From: Candidatus Poribacteria bacterium
Lineage (GTDB): Bacteria > Poribacteria > WGA-4E > WGA-3G
Direction: 5' to 3'
DNA length: 64,000 nucleotides
Assembly: GCA_022823085.1 (NCBI GenBank)
Contig: JAJDXV010000021.1
Span: forward strand, 1-64,000
A program made the position numbers and the translations under genes. Under the pieces are notes generated by a model. The model was not told the origin of the DNA and searched no databases. It saw nothing but the letters and a program-made list of their open reading frames with translations. Below, piece by piece: positions 21,763-36,429 of the stretch; within the stretch, counting starts at the first letter, position 1; every line of letters begins with the position of its first letter.

Positions 21763-22644
21763 ATGACAAGAGAAGAGATTATCCGCAGATTTAAGAGCCT
21801 ACGTATATGGAAAAGCAGTGGTGAGAGAGCCCCTCACAAACCTTTACTGACCCTCTACGCTATCGGTAGATTGCTACATGGCGAAAATCGGCTTATTTCA
21901 TATAGCAATGACATAGAAGACAACCTTACCAATCTGTTGAGAACTTTTGGCCAAGAACGTTCAAACGACCAACCGCACTTACCGTTTTGGAGGTTGCAAA
22001 ATGACAAGGTTTGGGAGGTAACTGATGCCGACAGAATTAACGAAACTACAAGCGGAGATCCGTATATAACGGACTTGAGAAACTACAACGTCTCTGGTGG
22101 TTTCCTTGAGGAAATAGTACATGAGTTTCAAATAGATGCTAATTTCGCTTTTAAAATAAGTCAATATATGCTAGACCATTTTCCAGCTTCGATGCATCAA
22201 GAAATTTTACAAGCTGTTGAAATTCCAACCTTCGTAATTGAGCCTCAACCTCCTAATCCAAACTTTCAATCAGATGTTATGAACGCTTATAAGGAAAAAT
22301 GTGCTGTCTGCGGTTTTCGCATCAGACTTGAAAACCAACCAATCGCTTTGGAAACTACGCACATCAAACCACCTGAAGCAGGAGGGCCCGATGCAGAAGA
22401 AAACGGTTTAGCTCTCTGTTCTCTACATCATGAACTGTTCAACAAAGGGGCTTTTACGCTATCTGAGAATCTGCATGTATTAGTGTCCAAGCATACCAAG
22501 GGAAAAGGAACAGGGGATTGGTTGAAAAAATTTCACGGAGAAAAGATGAAATTTCCACCACACCAAATCTATTATCCTCGCATTCATTTCACAGACTGGC
22601 ACTTCAAAAATAGATTTAGAGGACCAGCCCGCGAAAAAATTTGA
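21763..22644 (+). CDS. Phosphorothioated-DNA-binding (SBD) HNH restriction endonuclease
   Basis: 293 residues. The N-terminal half has the pattern of the sulfur-binding domain family: WKSSGERAPHKPLLTLYAIG at about residues 16-35 and PFWRLQNDKVWEV at about 75. The C-terminal half is an HNH nuclease: CAVC (Cys180, Cys183), THIKP with His200, then ENGLALCSLHHELFNKG. Such proteins cleave DNA carrying phosphorothioate links (family knowledge), so it may attack foreign PT-DNA or act as the effector of the adjacent modification genes. The latter would need a way to spare self DNA. It has its own promoter and lies 434 bases upstream of the DUF4007 gene on the same strand. Base composition is more AT-rich than the first 21 kb. 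Confidence 0.82.
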   Translation: MTREEIIRRFKSLRIWKSSGERAPHKPLLTLYAIGRLLHGENRLISYSNDIEDNLTNLLRTFGQERSNDQPHLPFWRLQNDKVWEVTDADRINETTSGDPYITDLRNYNVSGGFLEEIVHEFQIDANFAFKISQYMLDHFPASMHQEILQAVEIPTFVIEPQPPNPNFQSDVMNAYKEKCAVCGFRIRLENQPIALETTHIKPPEAGGPDAEENGLALCSLHHELFNKGAFTLSENLHVLVSKHTKGKGTGDWLKKFHGEKMKFPPHQIYYPRIHFTDWHFKNRFRGPAREKI

Positions 22645-23078: not shown

Positions 23079-24050
23079 TTGAGCAACACACGTACCATCC
23101 TCCCCCAGATAATTACACCATCTTTCTCAGGACATCAGACCTTCCCGTTTCGATATACGTGGCTGAAGAAGGGGATCGATGCTGTCGCAGCAGATCCGAA
23201 CATCTTCTCCTCTGAAAACGCCTCGGTTACTTTAGGTGTCGGAAAAAACATGGTGAGCTCCATCCGACATTGGTGCCGTGTATCACGACTCATTGAAGAG
23301 GGAACAGGTCAACCTACGCAAGTCACTATGCAGCTCAGTGAAAAGGGAACAGTCTATCGCCGCGGGCAATTCGCACCTACGCAGCTCGGCAGTGCCATTT
23401 TTGGCGAAAACGGATTCGACCCATACCTTGATGACCCAGCGACTTTGTGGTTGATTCATTGGCAAATCGCGACCAATACCACTCAGGCGACAGCATGGTA
23501 CTGGGCTTTTAACGTTCTAAGAGGGAATCAATTCACACCCCCTATATTCACACGAGAAGTGTATAAATGGGCACAACAGCAGAAACAGTCTATGCGACCT
23601 GTCTCCGACAACACACTACGGCGGGATGTCAATTGCTTTATCCGAACCTACTGCCAGTCGCGTTATAGTGATACCGTTGCTGAGGAAACTTTTGACTGTC
23701 CACTCGTTGAACTCAACCTAATTGCCGAATTACCAGACAGCGATGGCTATGAATTCCAGCGCGGCGACAAAGAGACATTACCGATTGAAGTCGTCGCATG
23801 GGCATTAGACACGTTTTGGAAAAATCGCTTCTTCTGGAGAGAATCGCTTACGTTCTCAGATTTGATGTACGCACGCGCGAGTCCCGGACGGGTTTTCAGG
23901 TTAGATGAAGATACAATGACGACCTATCTCGAAGACCTCGAGCAACTCACGGACGGCGCACTGCAATACGATGAGACAACAGGTCTAAAGCAGCTATATC
24001 GACATAGAAATTTAGATCAGAGGAGACTTTTAAAGAGGTACTATGAATAA
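23079..24050 (+). CDS. DUF4007-family protein, SspB-like (DNA phosphorothioation nickase candidate)
   Basis: 323 residues, recognised as DUF4007 by FSGHQTFPFRYTWLKKG and ENASVTLGVGKNMVSSIRHW, with the conserved middle WLIHWQIATN. DUF4007 proteins accompany PAPS-reductase-like genes; SspB of the single-strand phosphorothioation system is, to my knowledge, of this family and nicks DNA. The start is TTG 23079 after AGGGGGTG. The gene overlaps the following ATPase gene by 8 bases, so the two are surely co-translated. An alternative setting for DUF4007 is a type 4 BREX-like system, but no PglZ or BrxL gene is present here. Confidence 0.72.
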   Translation: MSNTRTILPQIITPSFSGHQTFPFRYTWLKKGIDAVAADPNIFSSENASVTLGVGKNMVSSIRHWCRVSRLIEEGTGQPTQVTMQLSEKGTVYRRGQFAPTQLGSAIFGENGFDPYLDDPATLWLIHWQIATNTTQATAWYWAFNVLRGNQFTPPIFTREVYKWAQQQKQSMRPVSDNTLRRDVNCFIRTYCQSRYSDTVAEETFDCPLVELNLIAELPDSDGYEFQRGDKETLPIEVVAWALDTFWKNRFFWRESLTFSDLMYARASPGRVFRLDEDTMTTYLEDLEQLTDGALQYDETTGLKQLYRHRNLDQRRLLKRYYE

Positions 24051-27000
24051 CGTTCCGTTATCAGACATTTTTCATATTACAAAACGCTTTCAACGCTCTG
24101 TGCATTTGGTACGGGATTTTTATACTGAAAACGCCTTAGACGGGTACGTTGTGACTGTCAAGGCGCGGGAAACCCTTACCCGTCTAATTTCAGCACAGGA
24201 GAACAGTGCAACATCAAAAGCATGGTCTCTTACCGGTCCTTATGGGTCAGGAAAATCAGCGTTCGCGCTTTTCACTGCGAAAGTCCTCGGGGATCCAGCT
24301 GCTCCGACAACACAACAAGCTTTAGAATTACTACAGCGTGGAGACCCCTCACTCTATGAACGATTTATCAGCATAAGCGGGAACGGCAGGAGAATATCAT
24401 CAGGTTTTTGTCCGGTCCTAATCTCTGGTGAACGCGCACCAATTACGCGGGCACTCCTGCAAGGATTAGAACACGGGCTTAAAACCTTCGGTATATCCTC
24501 ACGGCACTCGCTTCAAAAAGACATCCAAGAACTCTTGAAAACGGGAGCAAACGGCAATCCCCCACAGGCAACTGAAATCACAAAACTTTTTGAAGACGCA
24601 ACACGTGCTATTAAGAAAAAAGCTGGACACGGTTTGTTACTTGTCATTGATGAACTTGGAAAATTCCTCGAGTACGCTGCACAACACCCCGTACAAGACG
24701 ACGTATTTGTTCTACAAACCCTCGCCGAATTTGCCACACGAAGCAAGCAAACACCATTCTTTTTAATCACGATTCTTCATCAGGCTTTTGAACAATACGC
24801 AAACAAAATCGCCAAATCACAACGCGAGGAATGGGCAAAAATCCAAGGCCGGTTTGAAGACATTGCTTTTGTAGAACCTGCTGAGCAGGTACTCCGATTG
24901 ATCGGATCCGCTATCCAACATAAGATGGAAATCCCGTCTACACCCATCGAATCAAACCTCAAACCTAACCAACTGTCCGACGAGAAAGAATTTAGTGAAC
25001 TCATCAGAACCTGTTTGCCACTCCACCCAATAGTTGCACTTATTGTAGGCCCTATCTTCAGACGCTTCGCACAGAATGAACGTTCCCTCTTCGCCTTTCT
25101 TAATTCAAGTGAACCTTATGGGCTACAAGACTTTCTCAAAAACAAACATTACAATGGAGGCGCACCGCCGATGTTTTCGGTCGCCGATCTCTATGATTAT
25201 CTCAACACTACTATAGGAAATCGGCTCTCCGCTGCACGCGACGGTGATAAGTGGATCGAGATTGAGATGGCTATTAACCGACTGACAGACCCAGCACCGA
25301 TACTCGTTAAACTCATTAAGACGATAGGACTGTTCAGTATCATCGGAGAGGTGAGTACGAACTTGAAAGCCTCAGAACGTATACTTCATTATGCCTTAAA
25401 TGACCACACATCGGAATTCAATCAGGAATTTGATACCGCACTAAAGACACTGGAAAAACGTTCAATTGTTACCTACCGCCGCTACAATGATGTCTATGCA
25501 CTCTGGGAGGGAAGCGACATTGATATCGAGAGGTTGTCTTACGAAGCGGAAGGACACCTCGATCCGAACGAGACACTTACGAATTATTTGTCAAAATTGA
25601 CATCGCCGCGGCCCCTGATCGCCCGCCGACACCTATTTGAGAAAGGCACGCTCCGCTATTTTGAGGTTCGGTACACCGATCTCGAAAACTTTGATGCGAA
25701 TCTGAGTGAACCGCTCGGTGATGCCGACGGGCTGGTGCTTTATGCCCTACCCGCAGGTGAAGATGAAGTAAATCAGTTCGCCGAAAAAGCGAATGAAAAA
25801 GACACCACAGAACGTCAAAACGTGCTGATCGGTATCCCACACGCCACCCGTTTTCTCCGCGATGCCGTCACTGAACTCGCCTGCCTACACTGGATTTCGG
25901 ACAATACGCCCGAACTCGAAGGGGACGCGGTGGCGAGACGTGAACTTTCAATCCGATGGGTCGCAGCAGAACGGGATGTCGCTGATCAATTAGCAAAGAT
26001 TTTCGGTGGCGACAGCGATGAACCTTGTAGATGGTTTCATAAGGGACAAGAGATAGATATCAATTCGCAACGCGCAAGAAACGAGTATCTATCGGAAATC
26101 TGTGATACGGTTTATCACAAGACTCCACTTATTCGGAACGAACTCATTAATCGACGGAAAATCTCTGGCGCAGTAACGACTGCACGAAAGAAACTTATTC
26201 AAGCGATGCTTGAAAATAGCGATCAAGAGAACCTCGGTATCACCGGTTATCCTGCCGAAATGAGTGTCTATCGCTCACTTCTTTCAGAGACAGGCATACA
26301 TCGCGAAAATGTAGGGGTGTGGGGTTTCTATCCTCCGAAAATAGATGATAAAAACCAGATAATACATACATGGAAAGCGATTGAGGCTTTTCTCGATGCA
26401 TCTGAAAGTGAACGACAACCTGTCGTGAAACTCTATGAAACTTTGATGAATCCGCCACTCGGTGTTCGGGAAGGTCCACTTCCGATCCTCCTATGTGCTG
26501 TGATGCAGCACTACAAAACAGAAATCGCACTCTATGAAAACGGGTCCTTTATAGCAGATTGGTCCATGCCAGTTTTTGAAAGGTTTCTTAAAGCACCGCA
26601 ACTATTTGAATTGAAACGGTTTCGGATAACTGGAGTCCGTTCGGATCTGTTCTCTCAATTTTTGGGCGCATTTAAGCAACCCTCAGAAATTCAAACGCCT
26701 GATCTGCTAACAGTCGTTACACCGTTAATACAAACGATTGCGCAACTGCCGAAATATACTTTGACAACCCAGGAATTGAGTGATAACGCAAAGAATCTCC
26801 GTAAAGTTGTCTTGAATGCACGTGAACCTGACGAACTCCTCTTTAAACAGTTACCGGAAGCGTTCGGGTTCTCAGATTTTGGTACAGAGGCAGCAACAAG
26901 TACCGAAGCAGTATCGGAATTCTTTGGTATACTACGGGATGCACTGTCCGAATTGGAAAAGGCTTATGAGGTTTTGCTGAATTTCATCGAGCAAATGCTG

Positions 27001-27522
27001 GTAGAAGCCTTCACCTTAAAGCCATTAAGGAAAAATCCCCGTGCGGATTTAGTCGAAAGAGCGGAACCGCTGATAATGCTAACAATTGAGATGGACCTTA
27101 AAGGGTTTTTAGTCCAAGTCTGTAGCGGTGGACACGATTTCAGCAGCTGGCTTGAGGCAATCGCGACCTACCTCGCGAAAAAACCGCCGTCAACGTGGTT
27201 AGACACTGATAAAGTGCAATTTGAAAGCAATCTCGCGCAACTTGCAAGGAAATTCAGGCATTTTGAAGCGGTGTCTTATGAAAAGGTAGCACATACTACA
27301 TCATCAACAAGCGAACCCATCCGAGTCGGTATCACAACACCGAATCGAACCGAACAGGAACGAGTGGTTACATTGACACCGACAGCTGATGCACAAACGA
27401 CTGAAATGGAAAACGAGATCAGAAAAGTATTCGACAAGTTTGACATAGACGATAACCCAGAACTCCATATCGCAATCTTGGCGCGAATTTCACAAATGTG
27501 GATGCAGCAACTCGATGAATAG
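24043..27522 (+). CDS. Large P-loop ATPase, SspC-like
   Basis: 1159 residues. Walker A GPYGSGKSA with Lys71 and Walker B GLLLVIDELGKFLEY with Asp203/Glu204 mark an AAA-like ATPase in the first 300 residues. The remainder, about 850 residues, has no motif I can name. By position between the DUF4007 and PAPS-reductase-like genes it corresponds to SspC (inference). It starts within the end of the upstream gene (ATG 24043, AAAGAGG upstream) and ends 12 bases before the next gene. Confidence 0.72.
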   Translation: MNNVPLSDIFHITKRFQRSVHLVRDFYTENALDGYVVTVKARETLTRLISAQENSATSKAWSLTGPYGSGKSAFALFTAKVLGDPAAPTTQQALELLQRGDPSLYERFISISGNGRRISSGFCPVLISGERAPITRALLQGLEHGLKTFGISSRHSLQKDIQELLKTGANGNPPQATEITKLFEDATRAIKKKAGHGLLLVIDELGKFLEYAAQHPVQDDVFVLQTLAEFATRSKQTPFFLITILHQAFEQYANKIAKSQREEWAKIQGRFEDIAFVEPAEQVLRLIGSAIQHKMEIPSTPIESNLKPNQLSDEKEFSELIRTCLPLHPIVALIVGPIFRRFAQNERSLFAFLNSSEPYGLQDFLKNKHYNGGAPPMFSVADLYDYLNTTIGNRLSAARDGDKWIEIEMAINRLTDPAPILVKLIKTIGLFSIIGEVSTNLKASERILHYALNDHTSEFNQEFDTALKTLEKRSIVTYRRYNDVYALWEGSDIDIERLSYEAEGHLDPNETLTNYLSKLTSPRPLIARRHLFEKGTLRYFEVRYTDLENFDANLSEPLGDADGLVLYALPAGEDEVNQFAEKANEKDTTERQNVLIGIPHATRFLRDAVTELACLHWISDNTPELEGDAVARRELSIRWVAAERDVADQLAKIFGGDSDEPCRWFHKGQEIDINSQRARNEYLSEICDTVYHKTPLIRNELINRRKISGAVTTARKKLIQAMLENSDQENLGITGYPAEMSVYRSLLSETGIHRENVGVWGFYPPKIDDKNQIIHTWKAIEAFLDASESERQPVVKLYETLMNPPLGVREGPLPILLCAVMQHYKTEIALYENGSFIADWSMPVFERFLKAPQLFELKRFRITGVRSDLFSQFLGAFKQPSEIQTPDLLTVVTPLIQTIAQLPKYTLTTQELSDNAKNLRKVVLNAREPDELLFKQLPEAFGFSDFGTEAATSTEAVSEFFGILRDALSELEKAYEVLLNFIEQMLVEAFTLKPLRKNPRADLVERAEPLIMLTIEMDLKGFLVQVCSGGHDFSSWLEAIATYLAKKPPSTWLDTDKVQFESNLAQLARKFRHFEAVSYEKVAHTTSSTSEPIRVGITTPNRTEQERVVTLTPTADAQTTEMENEIRKVFDKFDIDDNPELHIAILARISQMWMQQLDE

Positions 27523-27534
27523 AGAGGTGAAAAG

Positions 27535-28377
27535 ATGGCAGAAAAAATCCGCCACGTCCTTGGACTCTCCGGTGGTAAAGACAGCTCAGCACTCGCCGTT
27601 TATATGCGGGATAAGGTACCGGAGATGGAATACTTCTTCTCTGACACCGGCAAGGAATTGCAGGAGACTTACGATTTTTTGGATCGGTTAGAGGCATTTC
27701 TCGGCAAACCGATTGTACGTCTCAATATGAACGCCGATGCCAACAGTAACCGCGATTTCGATCATTGGTTGACGGTCTACGGTGGGTTATTGCCGTCGTC
27801 TCAAATCCGCTGGTGTACCGTCAACTTGAAAATACGACCTTTTGAGGAATACATCGGCGAAGATCATGCGTATCACTACATCGCCATCCGTGCCGACGAA
27901 GATCGCATCGGTTACAAGCCGCCGAGCATCTCCTCTCTCAATAATATCGAACCCAAATATCCGTTCAAAGAGGACGGCATTACAAAAGAAGATGTCTACC
28001 GAATACTCGAGGAGAGCGGACTCGGTCTGCCCGACTATTACAAGTGGCGGACACGTTCCGGTTGTTACTTCTGTTTCTTCCAACGTAAATCCGAGTGGGT
28101 CGGACTGTTAGAACAGCATCCAGACCTTTTTGAACTCGCCAAGCAATACGAGAAACCGAACCCTAACGCCAAGACAGGAGAAGTATTCACATGGTGTCAG
28201 GATGAAAGTTTAGAGGAATTATCGCAACCGGAACGGGTTGCAGAAATCAAGGCAAACACTGAAAAGGCGATGGCATCCAAGAAAGCCGCAAAACCGAACC
28301 GTCGTTTAATAGAAATCCTCACCGATGTCCTCGACGACGAGGATGACGAGGAACCCTGCTTGCCTTGTCATAAGTGA
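27535..28377 (+). CDS. PAPS reductase-like ATP pyrophosphatase, SspD/DndC-like
   Basis: 280 residues. The PP-loop SGGKDS (residues 12-17) binds and activates ATP. Cys94 (IRWCTVNLKIRPFE), Cys177 and Cys180 (RSGCYFCFFQRKSEW) are candidates for the iron-sulfur or sulfur-transfer site. In DNA phosphorothioation this protein activates the DNA backbone for sulfur insertion (family knowledge for DndC/SspD). The C-terminus is unusual: a highly acidic stretch followed by CLPC (Cys275, Cys278). GAGAGGTG precedes ATG 27535. No cysteine desulfurase gene is nearby, so the sulfur donor must come from elsewhere. Confidence 0.82.
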   Translation: MAEKIRHVLGLSGGKDSSALAVYMRDKVPEMEYFFSDTGKELQETYDFLDRLEAFLGKPIVRLNMNADANSNRDFDHWLTVYGGLLPSSQIRWCTVNLKIRPFEEYIGEDHAYHYIAIRADEDRIGYKPPSISSLNNIEPKYPFKEDGITKEDVYRILEESGLGLPDYYKWRTRSGCYFCFFQRKSEWVGLLEQHPDLFELAKQYEKPNPNAKTGEVFTWCQDESLEELSQPERVAEIKANTEKAMASKKAAKPNRRLIEILTDVLDDEDDEEPCLPCHK

Positions 28378-28423: not shown

Positions 28424-28873
28424 ATGGGATATATTATGCGTCACGGTTGGACACTTGAAAAACAAGAGTGGGATATTTTACCACAAGTCATAGAGGGCAC
28501 AAGTTGGTCAAAAACAAAGTTAGCCCAACTTTATCGGGACCAGGTGCCTAAACGTTCAGGGGTCTATATTATTTGTGTTAAGATACCTCATTTCAATCAA
28601 TCGCCTTTTAAATCACTATACAATGTCATTTATGTTGGAAAAGCCGATAGAGGCACACTATATGACCGTTTTCTCTATCACTGCAACAATCCAAAACCAG
28701 AACTCGTGTTGGCGAGACAATGTTTTGGTGATAATCTCGAATATTGGTACACTGAGGTAAATCCTGATCAGGTACAGGAGCTCGAAGCACGCCTGATAGG
28801 ATGCTTTGGCCCACCGGCAAATCTCAAACAGGAAAGTATTCCTGCCAAGACTGCAGAAGGTCGTCCTGCTTGA
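28424..28873 (+). CDS. GIY-YIG nuclease-domain protein
   Basis: 149 residues, almost all a GIY-YIG domain: SGVYII (GIY strand), VIYVGKA (YIG strand), LYDRFLYHC with the catalytic Arg, and ELEARLIGCFGPPANLK with the metal-binding Glu and conserved Asn. It is therefore likely an active single-domain nuclease. It lies 46 bases after the sspD-like gene and 38 bases before the DGQHR gene, in the same operon. Such a nuclease is not a standard part of Dnd or Ssp loci that I know of. The ATG at 28436 (GGGA upstream) is an equally good start. Confidence 0.78.
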   Translation: MGYIMRHGWTLEKQEWDILPQVIEGTSWSKTKLAQLYRDQVPKRSGVYIICVKIPHFNQSPFKSLYNVIYVGKADRGTLYDRFLYHCNNPKPELVLARQCFGDNLEYWYTEVNPDQVQELEARLIGCFGPPANLKQESIPAKTAEGRPA

Positions 28874-28911
28874 TGTTTACTAACTTTGAAATATAGTGGA
28901 GGATTATGCTA

Positions 28912-30348
28912 ATGAATTTATATCCAGCTTTACGATCAAAAATGGGTGAATGGAACTACTACGTCGTGAAAATGAGTGCCCGCGAATTGGCTGATAATGT
29001 CCAACTTGCATCCGCTGTGTATGACGAAAACATTCTTGATGAATCAATTCAACGGACTTTAGACGAAGAAATTCAACGCACATTACGAGAAACCAGAGTT
29101 TACAAAGAGATTGTAGAATATTTAAAACGTCAACCGTATCGATTCTTTTCTTCACTTGTTGTAGCTGCACTTGAAGGAAACCCTATGTTCTATCCAGTTG
29201 AGATCACAGAAGATCCACAATTTGTCATTTTTCGTGATGACCAACGACTTAATGAGGCGTTTGGCCTTTTGAAGTTTGATGGAACGCAGAAATATTACGC
29301 TTTAGATGGTCAACACCGATTATCAGCGATCAAGACGCTATTAGACCGAACTAATTCATTGTCTGACGGGGCACCTGAAGATTTTGAAAATGATGAGTTT
29401 TCTGTCATAGTTGTTGTACCAAGTCAAGCGGATTCCAATCAAACGTTCATGCAAAAGTATCGGCGATTATTCACAAACCTCAACCGCTATGCCAAGAAGA
29501 CAGACAAAGCAACAGATATTATGATGGATGAGGACGATACATTTGCTATTCTCACAAGGCAGCTAATAAATAAAAACGACTTCTTTAAATCGCCCGAGGG
29601 AAGACAAAAGGAGTCAACGCGGATTAAAACAAAAAGCAAAAACCTCTCGGTTAACGATCCGCATTTTACTAGTCTTGAGACCTTGTATGAAATGAATATT
29701 GCTTTGCTAAAATCGGAACAGAGAGAGACTATAGGATGGGGACCCATCAGTACTGAAGGCGAGAATGAAAACACCTTCAAAAGGTTCCGTCCACCCGAGG
29801 AATACGTTGAAAGTCTCTACAGCGAATTGGAAATGTATTGGAACGCCCTGTTAGCAGAGCTCCCTGTGCTTCATAATGAACCTACTACCAAAATGCGGAT
29901 CCATGAACTCCCTGATGCGGAAACCGAGGATGGAACTGATCATCTATTGTTTTGGCCTATTGGACAGCAAATGCTAGCAGAAATCGTGAGAACGTTACTT
30001 GACAAACGCCTTCCTGATCCCGAAAATCCTACTCCTGACGCAGTCCGCGAGACTTTAAGCGGACTTAACCAACTAGAATGGCGGCTTCACCACGCACCGT
30101 GGCGTTATTTTTTATTGATTCGTTCAGCGGCAAATCGCTGGAATATGCGGAGCGAAGAGAGAGCAAAGGCAGTCCGGTGTGGACGGATCATTCAACAGTG
30201 GATCTTGGGATTGGAAGAACTTGACGAAAGTAGAGTTGAACGGTTAAAAAAAGATTGGGCAGGTTTCCTAATTCCGGCGCAACCTGAAGAGGAAATCAAC
30301 ATGATGTGGCAACAGATTGAACAGATGAAAGTCTCTATATCTGGGTAA
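28912..30348 (+). CDS. DndB-like DGQHR-domain protein, paralog 1
   Basis: 478 residues. The N-terminal pattern NLYPALRSKMGEWNYYVVKM and the signature ALDGQHRLSAIKTLL identify the DGQHR/DndB family. DndB represses dnd genes in known systems, so a regulatory or surveillance role in the phosphorothioation operon is likely (inference). The start at ATG 28912 lies 9 bases after GGAGG and aligns exactly with the paralog at 30733; the ATG at 28906 is too close to the ribosome-binding site. The paralog has the same length and is alike along the whole protein. Confidence 0.82.
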   Translation: MNLYPALRSKMGEWNYYVVKMSARELADNVQLASAVYDENILDESIQRTLDEEIQRTLRETRVYKEIVEYLKRQPYRFFSSLVVAALEGNPMFYPVEITEDPQFVIFRDDQRLNEAFGLLKFDGTQKYYALDGQHRLSAIKTLLDRTNSLSDGAPEDFENDEFSVIVVVPSQADSNQTFMQKYRRLFTNLNRYAKKTDKATDIMMDEDDTFAILTRQLINKNDFFKSPEGRQKESTRIKTKSKNLSVNDPHFTSLETLYEMNIALLKSEQRETIGWGPISTEGENENTFKRFRPPEEYVESLYSELEMYWNALLAELPVLHNEPTTKMRIHELPDAETEDGTDHLLFWPIGQQMLAEIVRTLLDKRLPDPENPTPDAVRETLSGLNQLEWRLHHAPWRYFLLIRSAANRWNMRSEERAKAVRCGRIIQQWILGLEELDESRVERLKKDWAGFLIPAQPEEEINMMWQQIEQMKVSISG

Positions 30349-30685: not shown

Positions 30686-30732
30686 AATGCTGATAACGAA
30701 AAAATCATCAACCCTAATGGAGTGTGACGCTT

Positions 30733-32169
30733 ATGAATGTTTATCCAGCTTTACGTTCACAAATGGGTACGTGGGACTATTATGTCGTCAAAATGAGTAC
30801 CAGTGAACTAAGTCAAAATGTGAAGTACGCTTCCGAAGTTCATGATGACCGTACTCTTGACAGAGCGATTCAACGACGATTAGATGAAAGTAGGGTCAAA
30901 AAAGATATTGTAGAATATTTGAAACGCCAACCAAATCGCTTTTTTTCGGCAATTGTTGTTGCTGCACTTAATGGAAATCCACGATTCTATCCAGTTAAGA
31001 TGACAGATGACCCGCGATTTGTCATTTTTCGGAATGATCCGAGGTTTAGTGAATCATTTGGCGTTTTGGAGTTTGATGGAACACAGAAGTACTATGCCTT
31101 GGACGGTCAACACCGTTTATCGGCAATCAAAACACTTTTGGATCAAAGTAACTATTCATCTTCTGATAGCATACCCGAAAACTTCGAAAACGACGAAATT
31201 TCTGTCATCGTCGTCGTGCCGAGCAATGAAGATTCTACTGAAACTTTCATGCAAAAGTACCGTAGACTCTTTTCTAATCTCAATCGCTATGCTAAACCGA
31301 TGGATCAGGCAACGAACATCATTATGGACGAGGACGATACATTTGCTATTCTCACGCGACGATTGATTACGGATCATACTTTCTTCCACTCAGATGTTGA
31401 AAGACAATTGGAATCAGAGAAGGTTAAAACTTCAAAGGGCAAAAACCTTAGGACTGGAGATTCATATTTTACCAGCATTGAAACACTATATGAAATGAAT
31501 ATTAAATTGCTGAGTTCCTCAAAAAGAGTATCTATAGGGTGGGGGCCAGGCAGTAAGGAAGGGCCGGATCTGCAAACCTTTAAAAAGTTCCGTCCACCTG
31601 AGGAATATATTGATAGTTTGTATAACGAATTATTGATGTACTGGGATGGATTACTTGCAGAACTTCCGATTCTTCGCAGCGATCCGATGAAAATGCGCTT
31701 CCACGAAATTACAGATAAAACAGACAAAGAGGGAACAGATCATTTGCTGTTTTGGCCCATTGGTCAACAAATGCTAGCAGAAATAGCACGGAAGTTGCTC
31801 AACGACCGACTTTCGGCCCCAGAGCATCCTATCGCTGACACTGTGCAGTATGCGTTACAAGGGCTCGGTCTACTGGAATGGAAACTTCACCAAGCTCCAT
31901 GGCAATATTTCCTATTAATCCGGACCATGACGCGTACAGGCAAGTCCAAATGGGTAATGCAAAGCGGGGCAAACCGGACTAACGCAGTTAATTGTGGTAG
32001 TCGAATTCAACAATGGATTCTCGGTTTGAAAGACAACAACGACAAAGACTTTAAGCCTGAGATTCTTAAACGCGAATGGAAAGGATTTCTGACCCCCGCC
32101 CAATCTGATGAAACAGTTGATGAACTATGGCAACAAGTTGAGGATAGGAAATCTGCTATGGCCTGGTAA
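30733..32169 (+). CDS. DndB-like DGQHR-domain protein, paralog 2
   Basis: 478 residues, identical in length to the paralog at 28912 and clearly similar throughout: NVYPALRSQMGTWDYYVVKM, YALDGQHRLSAIKTLL, LTRRLI, GTDHLLFWPIGQQMLAEIAR. Differences are spread evenly, so this is an old tandem duplication in which both copies stay intact. ATG 30733 is chosen over the upstream GTG 30724 by alignment with the paralog and by GGAG spacing. Keeping two copies suggests different partners, for example modified and unmodified DNA or two effectors (inference). Confidence 0.82.
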   Translation: MNVYPALRSQMGTWDYYVVKMSTSELSQNVKYASEVHDDRTLDRAIQRRLDESRVKKDIVEYLKRQPNRFFSAIVVAALNGNPRFYPVKMTDDPRFVIFRNDPRFSESFGVLEFDGTQKYYALDGQHRLSAIKTLLDQSNYSSSDSIPENFENDEISVIVVVPSNEDSTETFMQKYRRLFSNLNRYAKPMDQATNIIMDEDDTFAILTRRLITDHTFFHSDVERQLESEKVKTSKGKNLRTGDSYFTSIETLYEMNIKLLSSSKRVSIGWGPGSKEGPDLQTFKKFRPPEEYIDSLYNELLMYWDGLLAELPILRSDPMKMRFHEITDKTDKEGTDHLLFWPIGQQMLAEIARKLLNDRLSAPEHPIADTVQYALQGLGLLEWKLHQAPWQYFLLIRTMTRTGKSKWVMQSGANRTNAVNCGSRIQQWILGLKDNNDKDFKPEILKREWKGFLTPAQSDETVDELWQQVEDRKSAMAW

Positions 32170-32439: not shown

Positions 32440-33585
32440 TTATTTTTTTTCGGTTAGTCGTCTCGATATCTTTGGAATTTCCTTCAAATCGGGGAGAACG
32501 AAAGTCTCACAGCCGCATTCAAGTTTATGGTATTGCCAGTATGAATTAAGTGGTATAGAATCGTAACGCATCTTTTGAAAAGTGTTATGGGTGCCATCGA
32601 TATCAACCATACGTATCCAGCCAGGTTTGTCGGGTTCCAAAATTCTATATCTCTGAATACTTGGATCAAGCGCGAATTCGTTATGAATATGACCATAGAC
32701 ATAACGATTAGCAAACCTATGGGAAATACCAACCAGCATCCATTCTGGGTCGCAATTCGGACAATGTATTGGATTGCCAATAGTATGCGCGGTTTCGCCC
32801 CTCCTTTTATCAAATAATCGATACATCTTCTGCACCACTTCAAGGATATCTGGAGCATCTATGAGATAGAGACTTTCTGCCTGCTCTCTAATAGCAGTAG
32901 GAATACCGTGTAGTGCTTCAGCAATGGGACCAGCAATAGCAGCAAGGGTGTCTGAATCACCACCTAAAGATATCGCATTACGCACAGCATCTTCAAAATT
33001 CTTCGACTCCAAAGCACACGTTATCGCTTGAGGGACTGTTCCCTTGCTGGTCATATCAAAAGCATAGTCAGGGCGAATCTCGTCCACAGCCTGAGTTAAA
33101 TCATAGTCGTATTCAGTGGCAATAACTTGACGAATGTCCATAGGATCCTGGCCCTGAAACGCGAGCCAAATAGCGTGTGTTGTCGCGCGCGCGCCTTTCA
33201 TACCTTCCGGATGATTGTGTGTTAGCTCAGTCACCACATCGGTGGCAGTTAAAGCAGCACTCAAACTACCTCGATTCAGGAATGCCGCTGGAGAAACACG
33301 CATTGCCGCACCATTTCCGGAACTTTGGTATGGCTTAGGAATATCAGAATTGATCCACTCTTTAAATTTTCCACTGTTGAGTTTGGGATAACGGCGGCAC
33401 CACGCCTGCATCGTTGTCGCTGGTTGACGGTCGTTCAATAGAATATCAGCAACAGCAGCAGTGCACACTGTGTCAATTCTAAAATGACAAGCATCACTAA
33501 AGAAGATAAATTCTTTGGTTTTAATTCGCTCCCGTTCACGATAATAAATAGAACCCACAATGTTCCCTATAATCGCCCCTAACAT
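32440..33585 (-). CDS. ADP-ribosylglycohydrolase-family protein with an altered metal site
   Basis: 381 residues. The N-terminus MLGAIIGNIVGSIYYRE and the block SLGGDSDTLAAIAGPIAEALHG place it in the DraG family, which removes ADP-ribose from proteins or nucleic acids. The first metal-binding block, usually TDDT, reads RIDT here (CHFRIDTVCTAAVADIL), so one of the paired aspartates is gone; activity is uncertain. The C-terminal 130 residues add a domain with CPNC and CGCE that I cannot name. AAAGGAGA, 4 bases before the ATG at 33585, fixes the start. It lies in the defence island between the phosphorothioation and TIR genes and may counter ADP-ribosylating toxins or use NAD-derived signals (inference). 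Confidence 0.8.
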   Translation of the reverse strand: MLGAIIGNIVGSIYYRERERIKTKEFIFFSDACHFRIDTVCTAAVADILLNDRQPATTMQAWCRRYPKLNSGKFKEWINSDIPKPYQSSGNGAAMRVSPAAFLNRGSLSAALTATDVVTELTHNHPEGMKGARATTHAIWLAFQGQDPMDIRQVIATEYDYDLTQAVDEIRPDYAFDMTSKGTVPQAITCALESKNFEDAVRNAISLGGDSDTLAAIAGPIAEALHGIPTAIREQAESLYLIDAPDILEVVQKMYRLFDKRRGETAHTIGNPIHCPNCDPEWMLVGISHRFANRYVYGHIHNEFALDPSIQRYRILEPDKPGWIRMVDIDGTHNTFQKMRYDSIPLNSYWQYHKLECGCETFVLPDLKEIPKISRRLTEKK

Positions 33586-34432
33586 ATTTTCTCCTTTTAT
33601 TTTTATGCCTTCAAGTTTATGAAGTGCCAACCTTTATTTGCACCAAAAAATCAGTAAAGTTAAGACAAGTTTTGTTTCTCAAATTCGACAGATGTGTCAA
33701 ATACTTTAACGCTGAGTGAGGACGTTTCTATTTACACACCTGTTCGATAAAATGACCGAGGCGTGTTTTAACTTCGTTATACCCTCATATCACTGAGATT
33801 TTTATTATATCACAATTTTAATTTGGACAGTGGTCCAAGTTTCCAATGGCAGTACACCTCTTAACTTACCACTTATAACTCAAAAAACACCTATGACAAA
33901 ATGGCACACACTGCCCACCTATTTCTTTAATGCGACAATATGTCATATTCAAAAATCTGCCAAAATGTCACGCTTTCCAGCCCAACCTTGATAATATAAG
34001 GGTTCTAAAAATTGGCATGAAATTTGCTTACATAATCACAGAGGCGTTGTAGCACAAACTGTTAGTTTGTACGGGATATAGCCCAAATTAACAAGTAGAC
34101 GCTACATAAGTCCAACTTTTATCAAACTCACGTTAATTTATTAATAGGCACAGCCATGAAATCCGCAGAGATTTACTTGATAGGTGCGTCGCTGGTGAGA
34201 ATGTTACCCTTACCGACGTACCAAGCACAGTATATTAGGTAGTGTTTACGTTTCACCATCAAAATCGCAGGGAAATCAATGAACATCCAATGAACATCAA
34301 GTTATCCTCTGAAGATTCAGATAGATCCCTGCAGAACCATCGAAGTCTTACTCGGACTGGATCCGAAGTCAAAATGTAAACACAACCTAGTAACCAAACG
34401 CTTAACCACAATACAATTTAGGAGGTAATATT
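33586..34432. other. Gene-free region with a GTT-loop hairpin and one MITE-like element
   Basis: About 850 AT-rich bases without a supportable gene. Visible structures are the hairpin CACAAACT-GTT-AGTTTGT (34053-34070) and the element 34236-34389. The ribosome-binding site AGGAGGTAAT precedes ATG 34433. It separates the divergent ADP-ribosylglycohydrolase and Ymh-TIR genes, so their promoters should lie here, but I see no clear pair of boxes. Confidence 0.55.
34236..34389. mobile_element. MITE-like element with TAGGTAGTGTTTACG / AAATGTAAACACAACCTA ends
   Basis: The inverted ends TAGGTAGTGTTTACGTTT and, reversed, TAGGTTGTGTTTACATTT differ at few positions. The flanks TTAG and CTAG would fit a YTAR target duplication as used by IS5-type elements (tentative). 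It is 154 bases long with no reading frame. Confidence 0.5.
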
Positions 34433-35179
34433 ATGAGTATAGAGTCTATCTATCCGTTGATTCCAGATCATGAAGCCTTACTGGCATTTGAACCAGAAGA
34501 ATTAGCTGGTATTATTTTGGAATATTTTAATTCTAGGGGCACCAAAGGAAAAAGAGTAGTGGTAAGTTGTTACGGTAATTTCATTTCACCAGAAGCACTA
34601 AGAAATTACCCTAGTGGATATGAAGATGATATCCGCGATGCTCTTGTAGAGGCATTGGTGTGGCTGGAAAATGAGGGACTTATAGCACAAGACCCCCAAC
34701 AAAACAGCAGGCACTGGTATTTCATCACGAGACGCGGACGCACATTAGAAGATAGTACTGCCGTAGAAGCCTATCGAAAAGCAAACCTATTACCCAAAGG
34801 ACTCCTTCACCCAATAATGGTTGACAAAGTCTATCCTCTATTTTTGCGGGGTGCTTATGATACTGCTGTATTCCAAGCCTTCAAAGAGGTAGAGATAACA
34901 GTTCGCGAAGCAGGAAAGTACGCTGAAGAAGATTGTGATGTCGAATTGATGAAAAAAGCATTTGACTCTCAGACAGGAAAACTGACCGACACAACTCAAA
35001 CAGAGGATGAAAAACAAGCTACATCCGCTTTATTTATTGGGGCTATGGGTTTATACAAAACTCCCCCCTGTCATCGAAATATAAACTTTACTGCTGAGAG
35101 AGCAGCAGAAGCGATTATTTTCGCGCACCACTTGTTCAAGATTGTTGACTCTAGCACATCAGCATCAACCGCACCATAG
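34433..35179 (+). CDS. Ymh-family (TIGR02391-like) protein
   Basis: 248 residues. The C-terminal part matches the hypothetical Ymh pattern: FLRGAYDTAVFQAFKEVEI, VREAGKYAEED, LMKKAFDSQTGKLTD and LFIGAMGLYKTPPCHRN. The N-terminal 110 residues may be a winged-helix-like domain (ALVWLENEGLIAQDP), which is inference. Strong ribosome-binding site AGGAGG 8 bases upstream. The gene lies 44 bases before a TIR gene; Ymh-type proteins are often coded beside defence genes, so a two-gene defence unit is likely. Confidence 0.75.
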   Translation: MSIESIYPLIPDHEALLAFEPEELAGIILEYFNSRGTKGKRVVVSCYGNFISPEALRNYPSGYEDDIRDALVEALVWLENEGLIAQDPQQNSRHWYFITRRGRTLEDSTAVEAYRKANLLPKGLLHPIMVDKVYPLFLRGAYDTAVFQAFKEVEITVREAGKYAEEDCDVELMKKAFDSQTGKLTDTTQTEDEKQATSALFIGAMGLYKTPPCHRNINFTAERAAEAIIFAHHLFKIVDSSTSASTAP

Positions 35180-35223
35180 CGGAACTAATCAAAACCAAAA
35201 ATATTATTGGAGGTATTTAAGAA

Positions 35224-36429
35224 ATGAGAGAATACGAGTATGATGTTGCTTTATCTTTTGCTGGAGAAGATCGCCAGCACGTTGAAGCATTAGCAGAACT
35301 TTTGGAAAATAACGGTTACAAAGTATTTTATGACAAATATGAACGAGCCCAACTTTGGGGAAAAAACCTCTATACCCATTTGTCATCAATTTATAAAGAT
35401 AAAGCACGCTACTGTGTCCCATTTTTGTCTGAGCATTATGCCCGGAAGTTATGGGCAAATCACGAACTTGAGAGTGCTCAGGCGAGGGCGTTTGAGGAAA
35501 ATGAGGAGTATATTCTTCCGGTTAGGCTTGATGATACAGAAATCCCTGGAATTTTGGGAACAGTGGGCTATCTTGATCTGCACTCAATGTCCATTGAAGG
35601 GATATATCAGGCCCTGATAGAAAAGTTGTCAGATTCACCATCACAACAAACAACTGCCCCATCAACTTCTCCTATAGTTGAAGACACCTCTATAGAATTT
35701 TCCCTATTAGGTTCAGAGGACGGGAAATTATATTTCTTCCCTCTTCAAGAGGTTCGTCGAGATTCAAGCGAAATGTCCCTTGAACTTCTCCCAGAATCCC
35801 CCGAAAATGTTGCTTTTTTGAGGACCTTGCAGGACAAACTTAGTAACCGATTTTCAAATTCTAACACCCTTGCTTGTGCGTACCGAGAATACGCCTCTTG
35901 GGTAACACCACAGGACATTGTTGAAACCTCATCTCATTGGGAAATCCGTCTCAGCTCAGATACCAGAAGACATAATTACGATTTTTTCGACGAGACGACA
36001 GTCAACGGTATTCCACCAGACCAGATTGCCAAAATGCGTGCACGAAGAATTTTACTTGATGAAAAACTGGAAGATGTCAATCCAGCGTTGATTCCAAACG
36101 ATGTATTTAGTCAATCAATGCTAGAGACATATATCCGTGGTATGTCCTCATCCTCACATGAGCCTAGATTGCAAGTGACTGAATCCGCAATCCCGAAACT
36201 CTATCAACAACTTAGACAAACCCCAGAACGATTCAAGAAATACGCCCGTCTGGTTTCAATCCTCCATCTGAAACTGTCAAACACAGTTGAAAACGTCCTT
36301 CAATTAGATTTAGAATTATTAGGACCTACACAATTACAGGTCAGATTTAAGGGGATCCGTCCTAAATTCTATTCAAACATACCCGCTTCAACTATTGAAT
36401 TTGAGGGAATCTGTCCCTTGCTTGTCTGA
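35224..36429 (+). CDS. TIR-domain protein (probable NAD-consuming defence effector)
   Basis: 401 residues. Residues 1-135 form a bacterial TIR domain: YDVALSFAGEDRQHVEALA, GYKVFYDKYERAQLWG, and ANHELESAQARAFEENEEYI with Glu81 as the likely catalytic residue, then DDTEIPGILGTVGYLDL. Residues 136-401 have no motif I recognise and probably sense the trigger or bind the Ymh partner. GGAGG lies 10 bases before the ATG. A strong terminator follows at 36488. TIR effectors kill or arrest infected cells by degrading NAD or making cyclic ADP-ribose (family knowledge). Confidence 0.87.
   Translation: MREYEYDVALSFAGEDRQHVEALAELLENNGYKVFYDKYERAQLWGKNLYTHLSSIYKDKARYCVPFLSEHYARKLWANHELESAQARAFEENEEYILPVRLDDTEIPGILGTVGYLDLHSMSIEGIYQALIEKLSDSPSQQTTAPSTSPIVEDTSIEFSLLGSEDGKLYFFPLQEVRRDSSEMSLELLPESPENVAFLRTLQDKLSNRFSNSNTLACAYREYASWVTPQDIVETSSHWEIRLSSDTRRHNYDFFDETTVNGIPPDQIAKMRARRILLDEKLEDVNPALIPNDVFSQSMLETYIRGMSSSSHEPRLQVTESAIPKLYQQLRQTPERFKKYARLVSILHLKLSNTVENVLQLDLELLGPTQLQVRFKGIRPKFYSNIPASTIEFEGICPLLV

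What the first reader, a model, noticed from the sequence alone, without database searches (positions are those of the whole stretch)
28424..28873. GIY-YIG nuclease embedded in the phosphorothioation operon
The small protein keeps the GIY and YIG strands, the catalytic Arg and the Glu, and has no other domain. It is spaced like an operon member between the sspD-like and the first DGQHR genes. A stand-alone GIY-YIG nuclease is not a usual Dnd or Ssp component that I know of; it could be the nickase/effector or a repair enzyme.
Basis: partly seen in the sequence, partly recalled or inferred. Interest (0 to 1): 0.6.

Follow-up and report, generated by a model that had tools for sequence, protein, structure and literature searches.

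The report
Nuclease–DGQHR pair in DNA-sulfur defence
In a sponge-symbiont-type bacterium, a small DNA-cutting enzyme of the GIY-YIG family sits inside a gene cluster that puts sulfur into DNA, and it turns out to be one half of a recurring two-gene unit, found next to sulfur-modification genes in several bacterial phyla, that probably works as a cutting arm of this antiviral defence.

Summary
The 149-codon ORF at 28424-28873 is a GIY-YIG nuclease lying between sspD and two DGQHR (DndB-family) genes in an HNH-sspBCD cluster of a Ca. Poribacteria-type genome. A search by the nuclease alone over 84 related genomes gave 18 matches, all 18 followed by a DGQHR gene. The same order recurs on Rhizobium and Roseobacter plasmids and a Salmonella element, beside ssp or dnd genes. 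A second, different GIY-YIG family pairs with a longer DGQHR protein in Poribacteria, Cyanobacteria, Asticcacaulis and Nonomuraea. DndB-size proteins (359-372 aa) lack the partner (0 of 5). The gene is not a fixed Ssp component: 18 of 53 Ssp clusters carry any such nuclease, one as a remnant. It occupies a variable slot after sspD where HNH, SspE, PbeA or GIY-YIG genes alternate. Best reading: a two-subunit, phosphorothioation-linked restriction effector, with GIY-YIG as cutting subunit and DGQHR as NTP-driven sensor, analogous to SspE/DndI. That mechanism is inferred; the PT-sensing tyrosine of SspE/DndI is not at the matching place. I found no paper naming the pair.

The parts
28424..28873 (+). 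GIY-YIG nuclease gene (149 codons; likelier start ATG 28436)
28906..30348 (+). DGQHR/DndB-family protein 1, partner of the nuclease (PF14072 2.6e-35, TIGR03187 1.7e-28)
30724..32169 (+). DGQHR/DndB-family protein 2, tandem copy (65% identical to copy 1)
27535..28377 (+). SspD, PAPS-reductase-like sulfur transferase (PADLOC SspD 7.9e-115)
24043..27522 (+). SspC ATPase (PADLOC SspC 1106 bits)
23079..24050 (+). SspB, DUF4007 (PF13182 3.3e-87)
21763..22644 (+). HNH endonuclease of the PT-DNA-binding restriction type (NF045808, 269.5 bits, cut-off 180)

Best explanation
The gene encodes the DNA-cutting (probably nicking) subunit of a two-gene module, GIY-YIG + DGQHR, that serves as an exchangeable restriction effector of DNA-phosphorothioation (PT) systems. 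Shown by sequence: the GIY-YIG fold and core catalytic residues, purifying selection, near-obligate adjacency to a DGQHR gene (often with a 4-nt start/stop overlap), and placement beside ssp or dnd genes in several phyla. Inferred: the DGQHR protein (ParB/sulfiredoxin-type fold, DGQHR motif) binds and hydrolyses an NTP, senses a DNA feature (PT or its absence) and licenses the GIY-YIG partner to nick foreign DNA, as the DGQQR-NTPase and HNH halves of SspE and DndI do within one chain.
For: Search of 84 genomes by the nuclease alone: 18 of 18 matches followed by DGQHR. Plasmids: all 5 GIY-matching records also carry a DGQHR match directly beside it, since two DGQHR searches return the same five records; three contexts were opened, the other two records are near-identical to one of them. 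Roseobacter pROLI83 has sspABCD-GIY-DGQHR, the window's order; Rhizobium NXC14 and Salmonella SARB27 have it close to dndBCDE; Rhizobium K1/93 beside sspFGH. A different GIY-YIG family (hhalign probability 6%) pairs with longer, related DGQHR proteins (98%), in 6 of 7 plasmid records found by the DGQHR partner (Trichormus 0441 judged from its rows). The first gene after sspD is a nuclease-type gene (HNH, GIY-YIG, PbeA, SspE, DUF262-HNH) in 39 of 52 loci. DGQQR is essential for NTP hydrolysis and nicking in SspE (PMC13251355, Results part 1) and for ATP hydrolysis in DndI (PMC11662687, passages). A DndB-like protein binds ATP and GTP (PMC12704722, passages).
Against: No biochemistry. The tyrosine that I place as the PT sensor of SspE/DndI (YQR) is Ile/Val in 12 of 12 DGQHR-A rows and Leu in 8 of 8 DGQHR-B rows. 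Profile comparison of DGQHR-A with SspE aligns only the DGQ-R motif (probability 2.3%). Six DGQHR genes of about this type in the survey lack a GIY gene directly upstream, and HL-69 lacks it, so DGQHR can exist without it. N133 is lost in 13 of 27 relatives. Four genomes with the pair show no DndC, SspB or full SspD.
Confidence: 0.55

Rival explanations
1. Type-IV-like restriction of incoming PT- (or otherwise) modified DNA: the pair, often with an SBD-HNH gene, attacks modified foreign DNA and does not need self-modification.
For: In the Poribacteria survey the pair is followed by an HNH gene of the PT-DNA-restriction family in most loci outside ssp; five such HNH proteins from four loci give 135-150 bits against a cut-off of 180. 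In 4 of 11 genomes of these loci (G047, G052, G058, G078) no DndC, SspB or full-length SspD was detected.
Against: In most other loci the pair sits inside or beside a self-modification cluster, where cutting PT DNA would be suicidal. The four genomes are 92-97% complete drafts, so modification genes could be missed.
Confidence: 0.2
2. Suicide or backup effector (the proposal of Rakesh et al. for URI nucleases near Dnd): the nuclease cuts host DNA or another nucleic acid when the main restriction fails; DGQHR keeps it inactive.
For: It occurs together with other effectors (SspE, PbeA, HNH) in several clusters. URI genes at borders of Dnd systems were read this way (PMC10853773, passages).
Against: Here the gene is often the first gene after sspD, not at the border, and in the window's genome no SspE was found for it to back up.
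Confidence: 0.15
3. Regulator or modification accessory: as DndB is reported to repress dnd, the DGQHR protein regulates modification and the nuclease trims or nicks DNA for sulfur insertion.
For: DndB is described as an ATP-dependent repressor (stated in PMC12704722 and PMC10853773, passages).
Against: DndB-size proteins lack the nuclease partner (0 of 5); the pair occurs in genomes where no modification genes were found; most Ssp clusters do without it.
Confidence: 0.07
4. Passenger: a selfish or homing GIY-YIG gene lodged in the operon by chance.
For: Absent from most Ssp clusters. Remnants exist (L078 72 aa, L127 76 aa).
Against: Same neighbour in 18 of 18, two unrelated GIY families, start/stop overlap, dN/dS about 0.1.
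Confidence: 0.03

Closest known systems
SspE (Ssp restriction effector, DUF262 + DUF1524-HNH) and DndI
   Same: Same place after sspD; DGQ-R motif in a ParB-like protein; nuclease half; linked to PT genes
   Different: Two separate genes; GIY-YIG instead of HNH; the YQR tyrosine is not conserved; profile similarity limited to the motif
URI/GIY-YIG nucleases noted near Dnd systems (Rakesh et al. 2024, PMC10853773, passages)
   Same: GIY-YIG nuclease in PT gene neighbourhoods
   Different: In the passages I saw, no pairing with DndB/DGQHR is described and URI genes are placed at borders; here they are paired and inside ssp clusters
DndB (TIGR03233, about 360 aa)
   Same: DGQHR domain, PF14072
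   Different: Partner proteins are 413-506 aa (A type) or 622-799 aa (B type); DndB-size genes had no GIY neighbour (0 of 5; also L149)
R.Eco29kI and UvrC N-terminal domain
   Same: GIY-YIG fold, best PDB matches
   Different: No further UvrC domain; not shown to be sequence-specific
GmrSD type IV restriction (GmrS DUF262 / GmrD HNH, sometimes as two genes)
   Same: Two-subunit NTPase + nuclease layout; DUF262 reported similar to DGQHR (PMC4619093, passages)
   Different: Nuclease of another fold; DGQHR rather than DUF262

Membership tests
GIY-YIG nuclease superfamily | GIY and YIG strands, helix Arg, helix Glu | tested here: met
   27 of 27 relatives; Pfam over cut-off; fold
GIY-YIG nuclease superfamily | DNA cleavage activity | not testable with these tools
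   needs protein
Ssp modification system (cluster) | sspB, sspC, sspD in order | tested here: met
Ssp modification system (cluster) | sspA cysteine desulfurase (linked or elsewhere) | not tested
   not among the ten neighbouring genes scanned; genome not searched for it
SspE / DndI effector | DUF262 and DUF1524-HNH in one chain | tested here: not met
   DGQHR (PF14072) and GIY-YIG in two genes; GmrSD_N only below its cut-off (E 0.0036 and 0.00026)
SspE / DndI effector | DGQ-R NTPase motif | tested here: met
   D134 and R138 in 12 of 12 A-type rows; D and R in 8 of 8 B-type rows
SspE / DndI effector | PT-sensing Tyr (before QR) | tested here: not met
   Ile/Val (12 of 12) and Leu (8 of 8) at the place before Q; placing the sensor in YQR is my inference from Y25 of P0002
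DndB (canonical) | NCBIfam equivalog TIGR03233 above 328 bits | tested here: not met
   57.2 and 48.8 bits
DGQHR domain family TIGR03187 | above 58.85 bits | tested here: met
   100.2 and 104.7 bits

The most novel reading that the evidence does not exclude
GIY-YIG + DGQHR is an unrecognised, widespread two-subunit restriction effector of phosphorothioation systems. At least two unrelated GIY-YIG families were independently recruited by DGQHR NTPases, so many proteins annotated as DndB are in fact sensor-NTPase subunits of nucleases, and some copies act without any self-modification.
Probability: 0.5. Interest if true: 0.75.

Novelty: new variant of a known kind. Interest (0 to 1): 0.6.

Why it matters
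DndB/DGQHR proteins have been treated mainly as regulators. If many of them are one half of a nuclease pair, a set of genes annotated 'DNA sulfur modification protein DndB' next to 'hypothetical protein' changes meaning, and PT systems gain an effector type that the PADLOC models used here (2023) do not hold. It gives a direct test: does a PT modification module plus the pair stop phages, and does mutation of R82, E121 or the DGQHR arginine abolish that? It also makes testable whether the pair can act as a type IV system where no PT genes exist.

Tried and rejected
Passenger or homing gene: rejected on the 18 of 18 neighbour count, two GIY families and dN/dS. Fixed Ssp component: rejected; 35 of 53 clusters lack it (plus window). 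UvrC-like or repair function: only the fold is shared. A structure-based link of DGQHR to SspE: the DGQHR model failed (mean pLDDT 47) and was not searched. Sequence searches of the PDB with DGQHR gave nothing. hhalign of DGQHR against SspE gave the motif only. The viral-contig search with DGQHR found one contig (L144) with a broken GIY piece ending at the DGQHR start; two GIY searches there found nothing. E. coli genomes: no match to the Salmonella DNA. Mirror-tree correlation r = 0.944 for 27 pairs against at most 0.36 in 2000 shuffles: weak evidence, because it reflects a few deep clades and shared species history. The genome-contig scan with the GIY alignment used one pattern and returned six Poribacteria loci only, so breadth outside the phylum rests on the plasmid, phage-collection and viral hits. 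Broken genes seen and left as they are: the Salmonella DGQHR frame near its start, the Trichormus GIY-B in two ORFs, L054's long DGQHR in two ORFs.

Full report
1. What is there. The ORF 28424-28873 (+) has 149 codons. The ATG at 28436 is the likelier start, since relatives in L086 and L072 begin at the matching MR(H/Y)GW. Pfam gives GIY_YIG_2 at 1.2e-6, over its cut-off; PADLOC and NCBIfam have no model for it. Upstream lie an HNH gene (NCBIfam PT-DNA_restrict, 269.5 bits, cut-off 180), SspB, SspC and SspD; downstream lie two DGQHR/DndB-family genes. No SspE match was found in the assembly. Named near relatives are Candidatus Poribacteria MAGs.

2. Is it a real nuclease gene? The model built from 7 sequences (mean pLDDT 72) has the GIY-YIG order of strands and helices. 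The five best PDB hits are UvrC's GIY-YIG domain and R.Eco29kI (Foldseek probability 0.77-1.00); all others listed are at or below 0.14; no hit reaches E 0.001. A profile search of PDB sequences ranks six UvrC domains first, E 0.0017-0.014. In 27 relatives G46, Y48, Y70, G72, R82 and E121 never vary; H86 is His in 5 and Tyr in 22; N133 is Asn in 14, Ser in 10, Val in 3. The window protein has all of them. dN/dS is 0.084-0.141 in the 7 of 10 window-type pairs where dS was computable, and 0.095-0.193 in 10 pairs of the second subgroup.

3. The nuclease is paired with a DGQHR gene. Searching 84 genomes of the phylum with the nuclease alone gave 18 matches in 16 genomes. In all 18 the next gene on the same strand is a DGQHR gene; one of the 18 is a 72-codon remnant (G016). 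In the 20 A-type loci the gene end overlaps the DGQHR start by 4 nt in 12 and by 1 nt in one. From the other side, 53 PF14072 hits were found in 39 of 84 genomes; 52 could be placed in fetched stretches (one could not). 35 lie directly after a GIY-YIG gene (26 of the window's family A, counting two remnants and one divergent two-domain protein in G024; 9 of family B), 2 are second tandem copies, 15 have none. The 15 are five of DndB size (359-372 aa), one DUF262-HNH, six of the partnered kind or near it, and three others (511-577 aa). As a control, the other GIY-YIG genes printed for the 38 genomes of the genus (list cut by the tool) do not lie beside PF14072 hits; the nearest I saw is about 25 kb away (compared by eye).

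4. Beyond the phylum. In 72,556 plasmids an A-type nuclease from Poribacteria matches 5 records, and DGQHR searches return the same 5; three of the five are near-identical Rhizobium plasmids, so the independent contexts are three. Roseobacter litoralis pROLI83 has sspA-B-C-D, nuclease, DGQHR: the window's order. Rhizobium NXC14 has the pair one gene before dndBCDE. Rhizobium K1/93 has it just before genes that PADLOC calls SspF, SspG and SspH. A Salmonella Infantis integrating element has nuclease, DGQHR and a GmrSD (DndI-like) gene facing dndBCDE; its DGQHR frame is broken near the start in that deposit. The phage collection holds one other DGQHR match, a DndB-size gene followed by a dndC-like ORF, without the nuclease. 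One IMG/VR contig has a broken A-type nuclease piece ending at the DGQHR start.

5. A second, unrelated pairing. Family B nucleases (about 200-240 aa; invariant Y122, G124, R133, H137, E207 in 10 rows) do not align with family A (hhalign probability 6%), while their DGQHR partners (622-799 aa) do align with the A partners (98%). In Poribacteria B nucleases are the first gene after sspD in 8 of 52 loci. The B DGQHR partner matches 7 plasmid records. A B nuclease is directly upstream in Geminocystis, both Trichormus records (in ATCC 29413 split in two ORFs; 0441 judged from its rows), both Asticcacaulis records and Nonomuraea, but not in Cyanobacterium HL-69. These loci hold sspBCD, sspABCD or parts of them; for Nonomuraea I saw only a cysteine-desulfurase-like ORF by eye and did not test further. 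Phyla: Poribacteria, Pseudomonadota (alpha and gamma), Cyanobacteriota, Actinomycetota.

6. The slot after sspD. I fetched stretches around the 52 SspD matches outside the window with E below 1e-90; weaker and partial SspD matches (for example G015, G017, G039) were not fetched. In these 52 loci the first gene after sspD is HNH of the PT-restriction kind 13, GIY-B 8, GIY-A 3, PbeA 6, SspE 6, DUF262-HNH 3, a HATPase protein C41 4, Type-ISP-like C98 2, C10 1, other 3, opposite strand 1, contig end 2 (families). Thus 39 of 52 are nuclease-type genes. Counting any place downstream, 17 of 52 loci plus the window carry a GIY nuclease, one as a remnant. So it is an alternative, not a constant, part; several clusters carry it together with SspE or Pbe genes.

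7. Outside ssp clusters. Eleven A-type loci (L102-L112) are away from ssp genes, most followed by an HNH gene. Five such HNH proteins from four loci match NF045808 below its cut-off (135-150 against 180 bits). In two of these loci (L110, L111) a dndC gene lies nearby. In 4 of the 11 genomes (G047, G052, G058, G078; 92-97% complete) neither DndC nor SspB was found and SspD only as weak or fragmentary matches or not at all. This fits either loss of modification genes, draft gaps, or action on foreign modified DNA.

8. Mechanism. SspE and DndI join a ParB-like DGQQR NTPase and an HNH nickase in one chain; the motif arginine is needed for NTP hydrolysis (PMC13251355, abstract and Results part 1; PMC11662687, abstract and passages). 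A DndB-like protein binds ATP and GTP (PMC12704722, passages), and DUF262 was reported to resemble DGQHR, sharing QR, DGQ-R and FxxxN (PMC4619093, passages). In the window-type DGQHR rows Q57, D134-R138, F189 and N193 are invariant in 12 of 12; residue 58 is Arg in 9 of 12. I therefore read the pair as a split effector with another nuclease. Against this stands that the tyrosine before QR, which I take for the PT sensor (Y25 of DndI; P0002 has YQR at 25), is Ile/Val/Leu here, and that a profile comparison with SspE aligns only the motif. What the DGQHR protein senses is thus open.

9. Novelty. Rakesh et al. 2024 (abstract, outline and passages) mention URI (GIY-YIG) nucleases among nucleases near Dnd cores, mostly at borders, and propose backup or suicide roles; I saw no pairing with DndB there. 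Full-text searches of the held library gave no paper that I could see describing the pair; besides the papers named above I read passages only of PMC12707154, PMC10952713, PMC12602166, PMC10273834, PMC10855626, PMC8416521 and PMC12839542. PMC8416521 lists a GIY-YIG gene a few locus tags from dnd genes in Rhodococcus without comment. Most subscription papers and bioRxiv as such are not in that library, and supplements could not be read.

Noticed in passing
21763-22644 and cluster C3 in L050-L112: An HNH gene of the PT-DNA-restriction type is the commonest neighbour of sspBCD in Poribacteria (first gene after sspD in 13 of 52 loci, upstream of sspB in others), although such enzymes are thought to cut PT-DNA (recalled); how self-damage is avoided is unclear.
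   Followed up: partly
L050:1628-4084 (+) and ten relatives; L144:7578-10019 (+): An 815-840 aa protein with a weak HATPase match (C10) recurs next to GIY-DGQHR pairs and SspE; a similar-looking ORF is beside DGQHR on a viral contig. No PADLOC model matched the one tested.
   Followed up: no
32440-36429: ADP-ribosylglycohydrolase (opposite strand), Hypoth_Ymh and TIR genes follow the operon; ADPRH relatives (68-89%) sit near three other Ssp clusters, and a 57% TIR relative lies next to a B-type pair and HNH in L141.
   Followed up: no
L131:879-3294 (+): A 263-codon protein with two GIY-YIG-like segments overlaps a 545-codon DGQHR gene in G024: a possible third lineage of the pairing.
   Followed up: no
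L097:2283-3527 (-), L083, L087: A 415 aa DUF262 + HNH_5 protein (NsnA-like by PADLOC) occupies the slot after sspD and precedes DGQHR, in L087 with the GIY gene between them.
   Followed up: no
L080:6013-9102 (-), L099: A Type ISP restriction-modification-like enzyme (1030 aa) directly follows sspD in two clusters.
   Followed up: no
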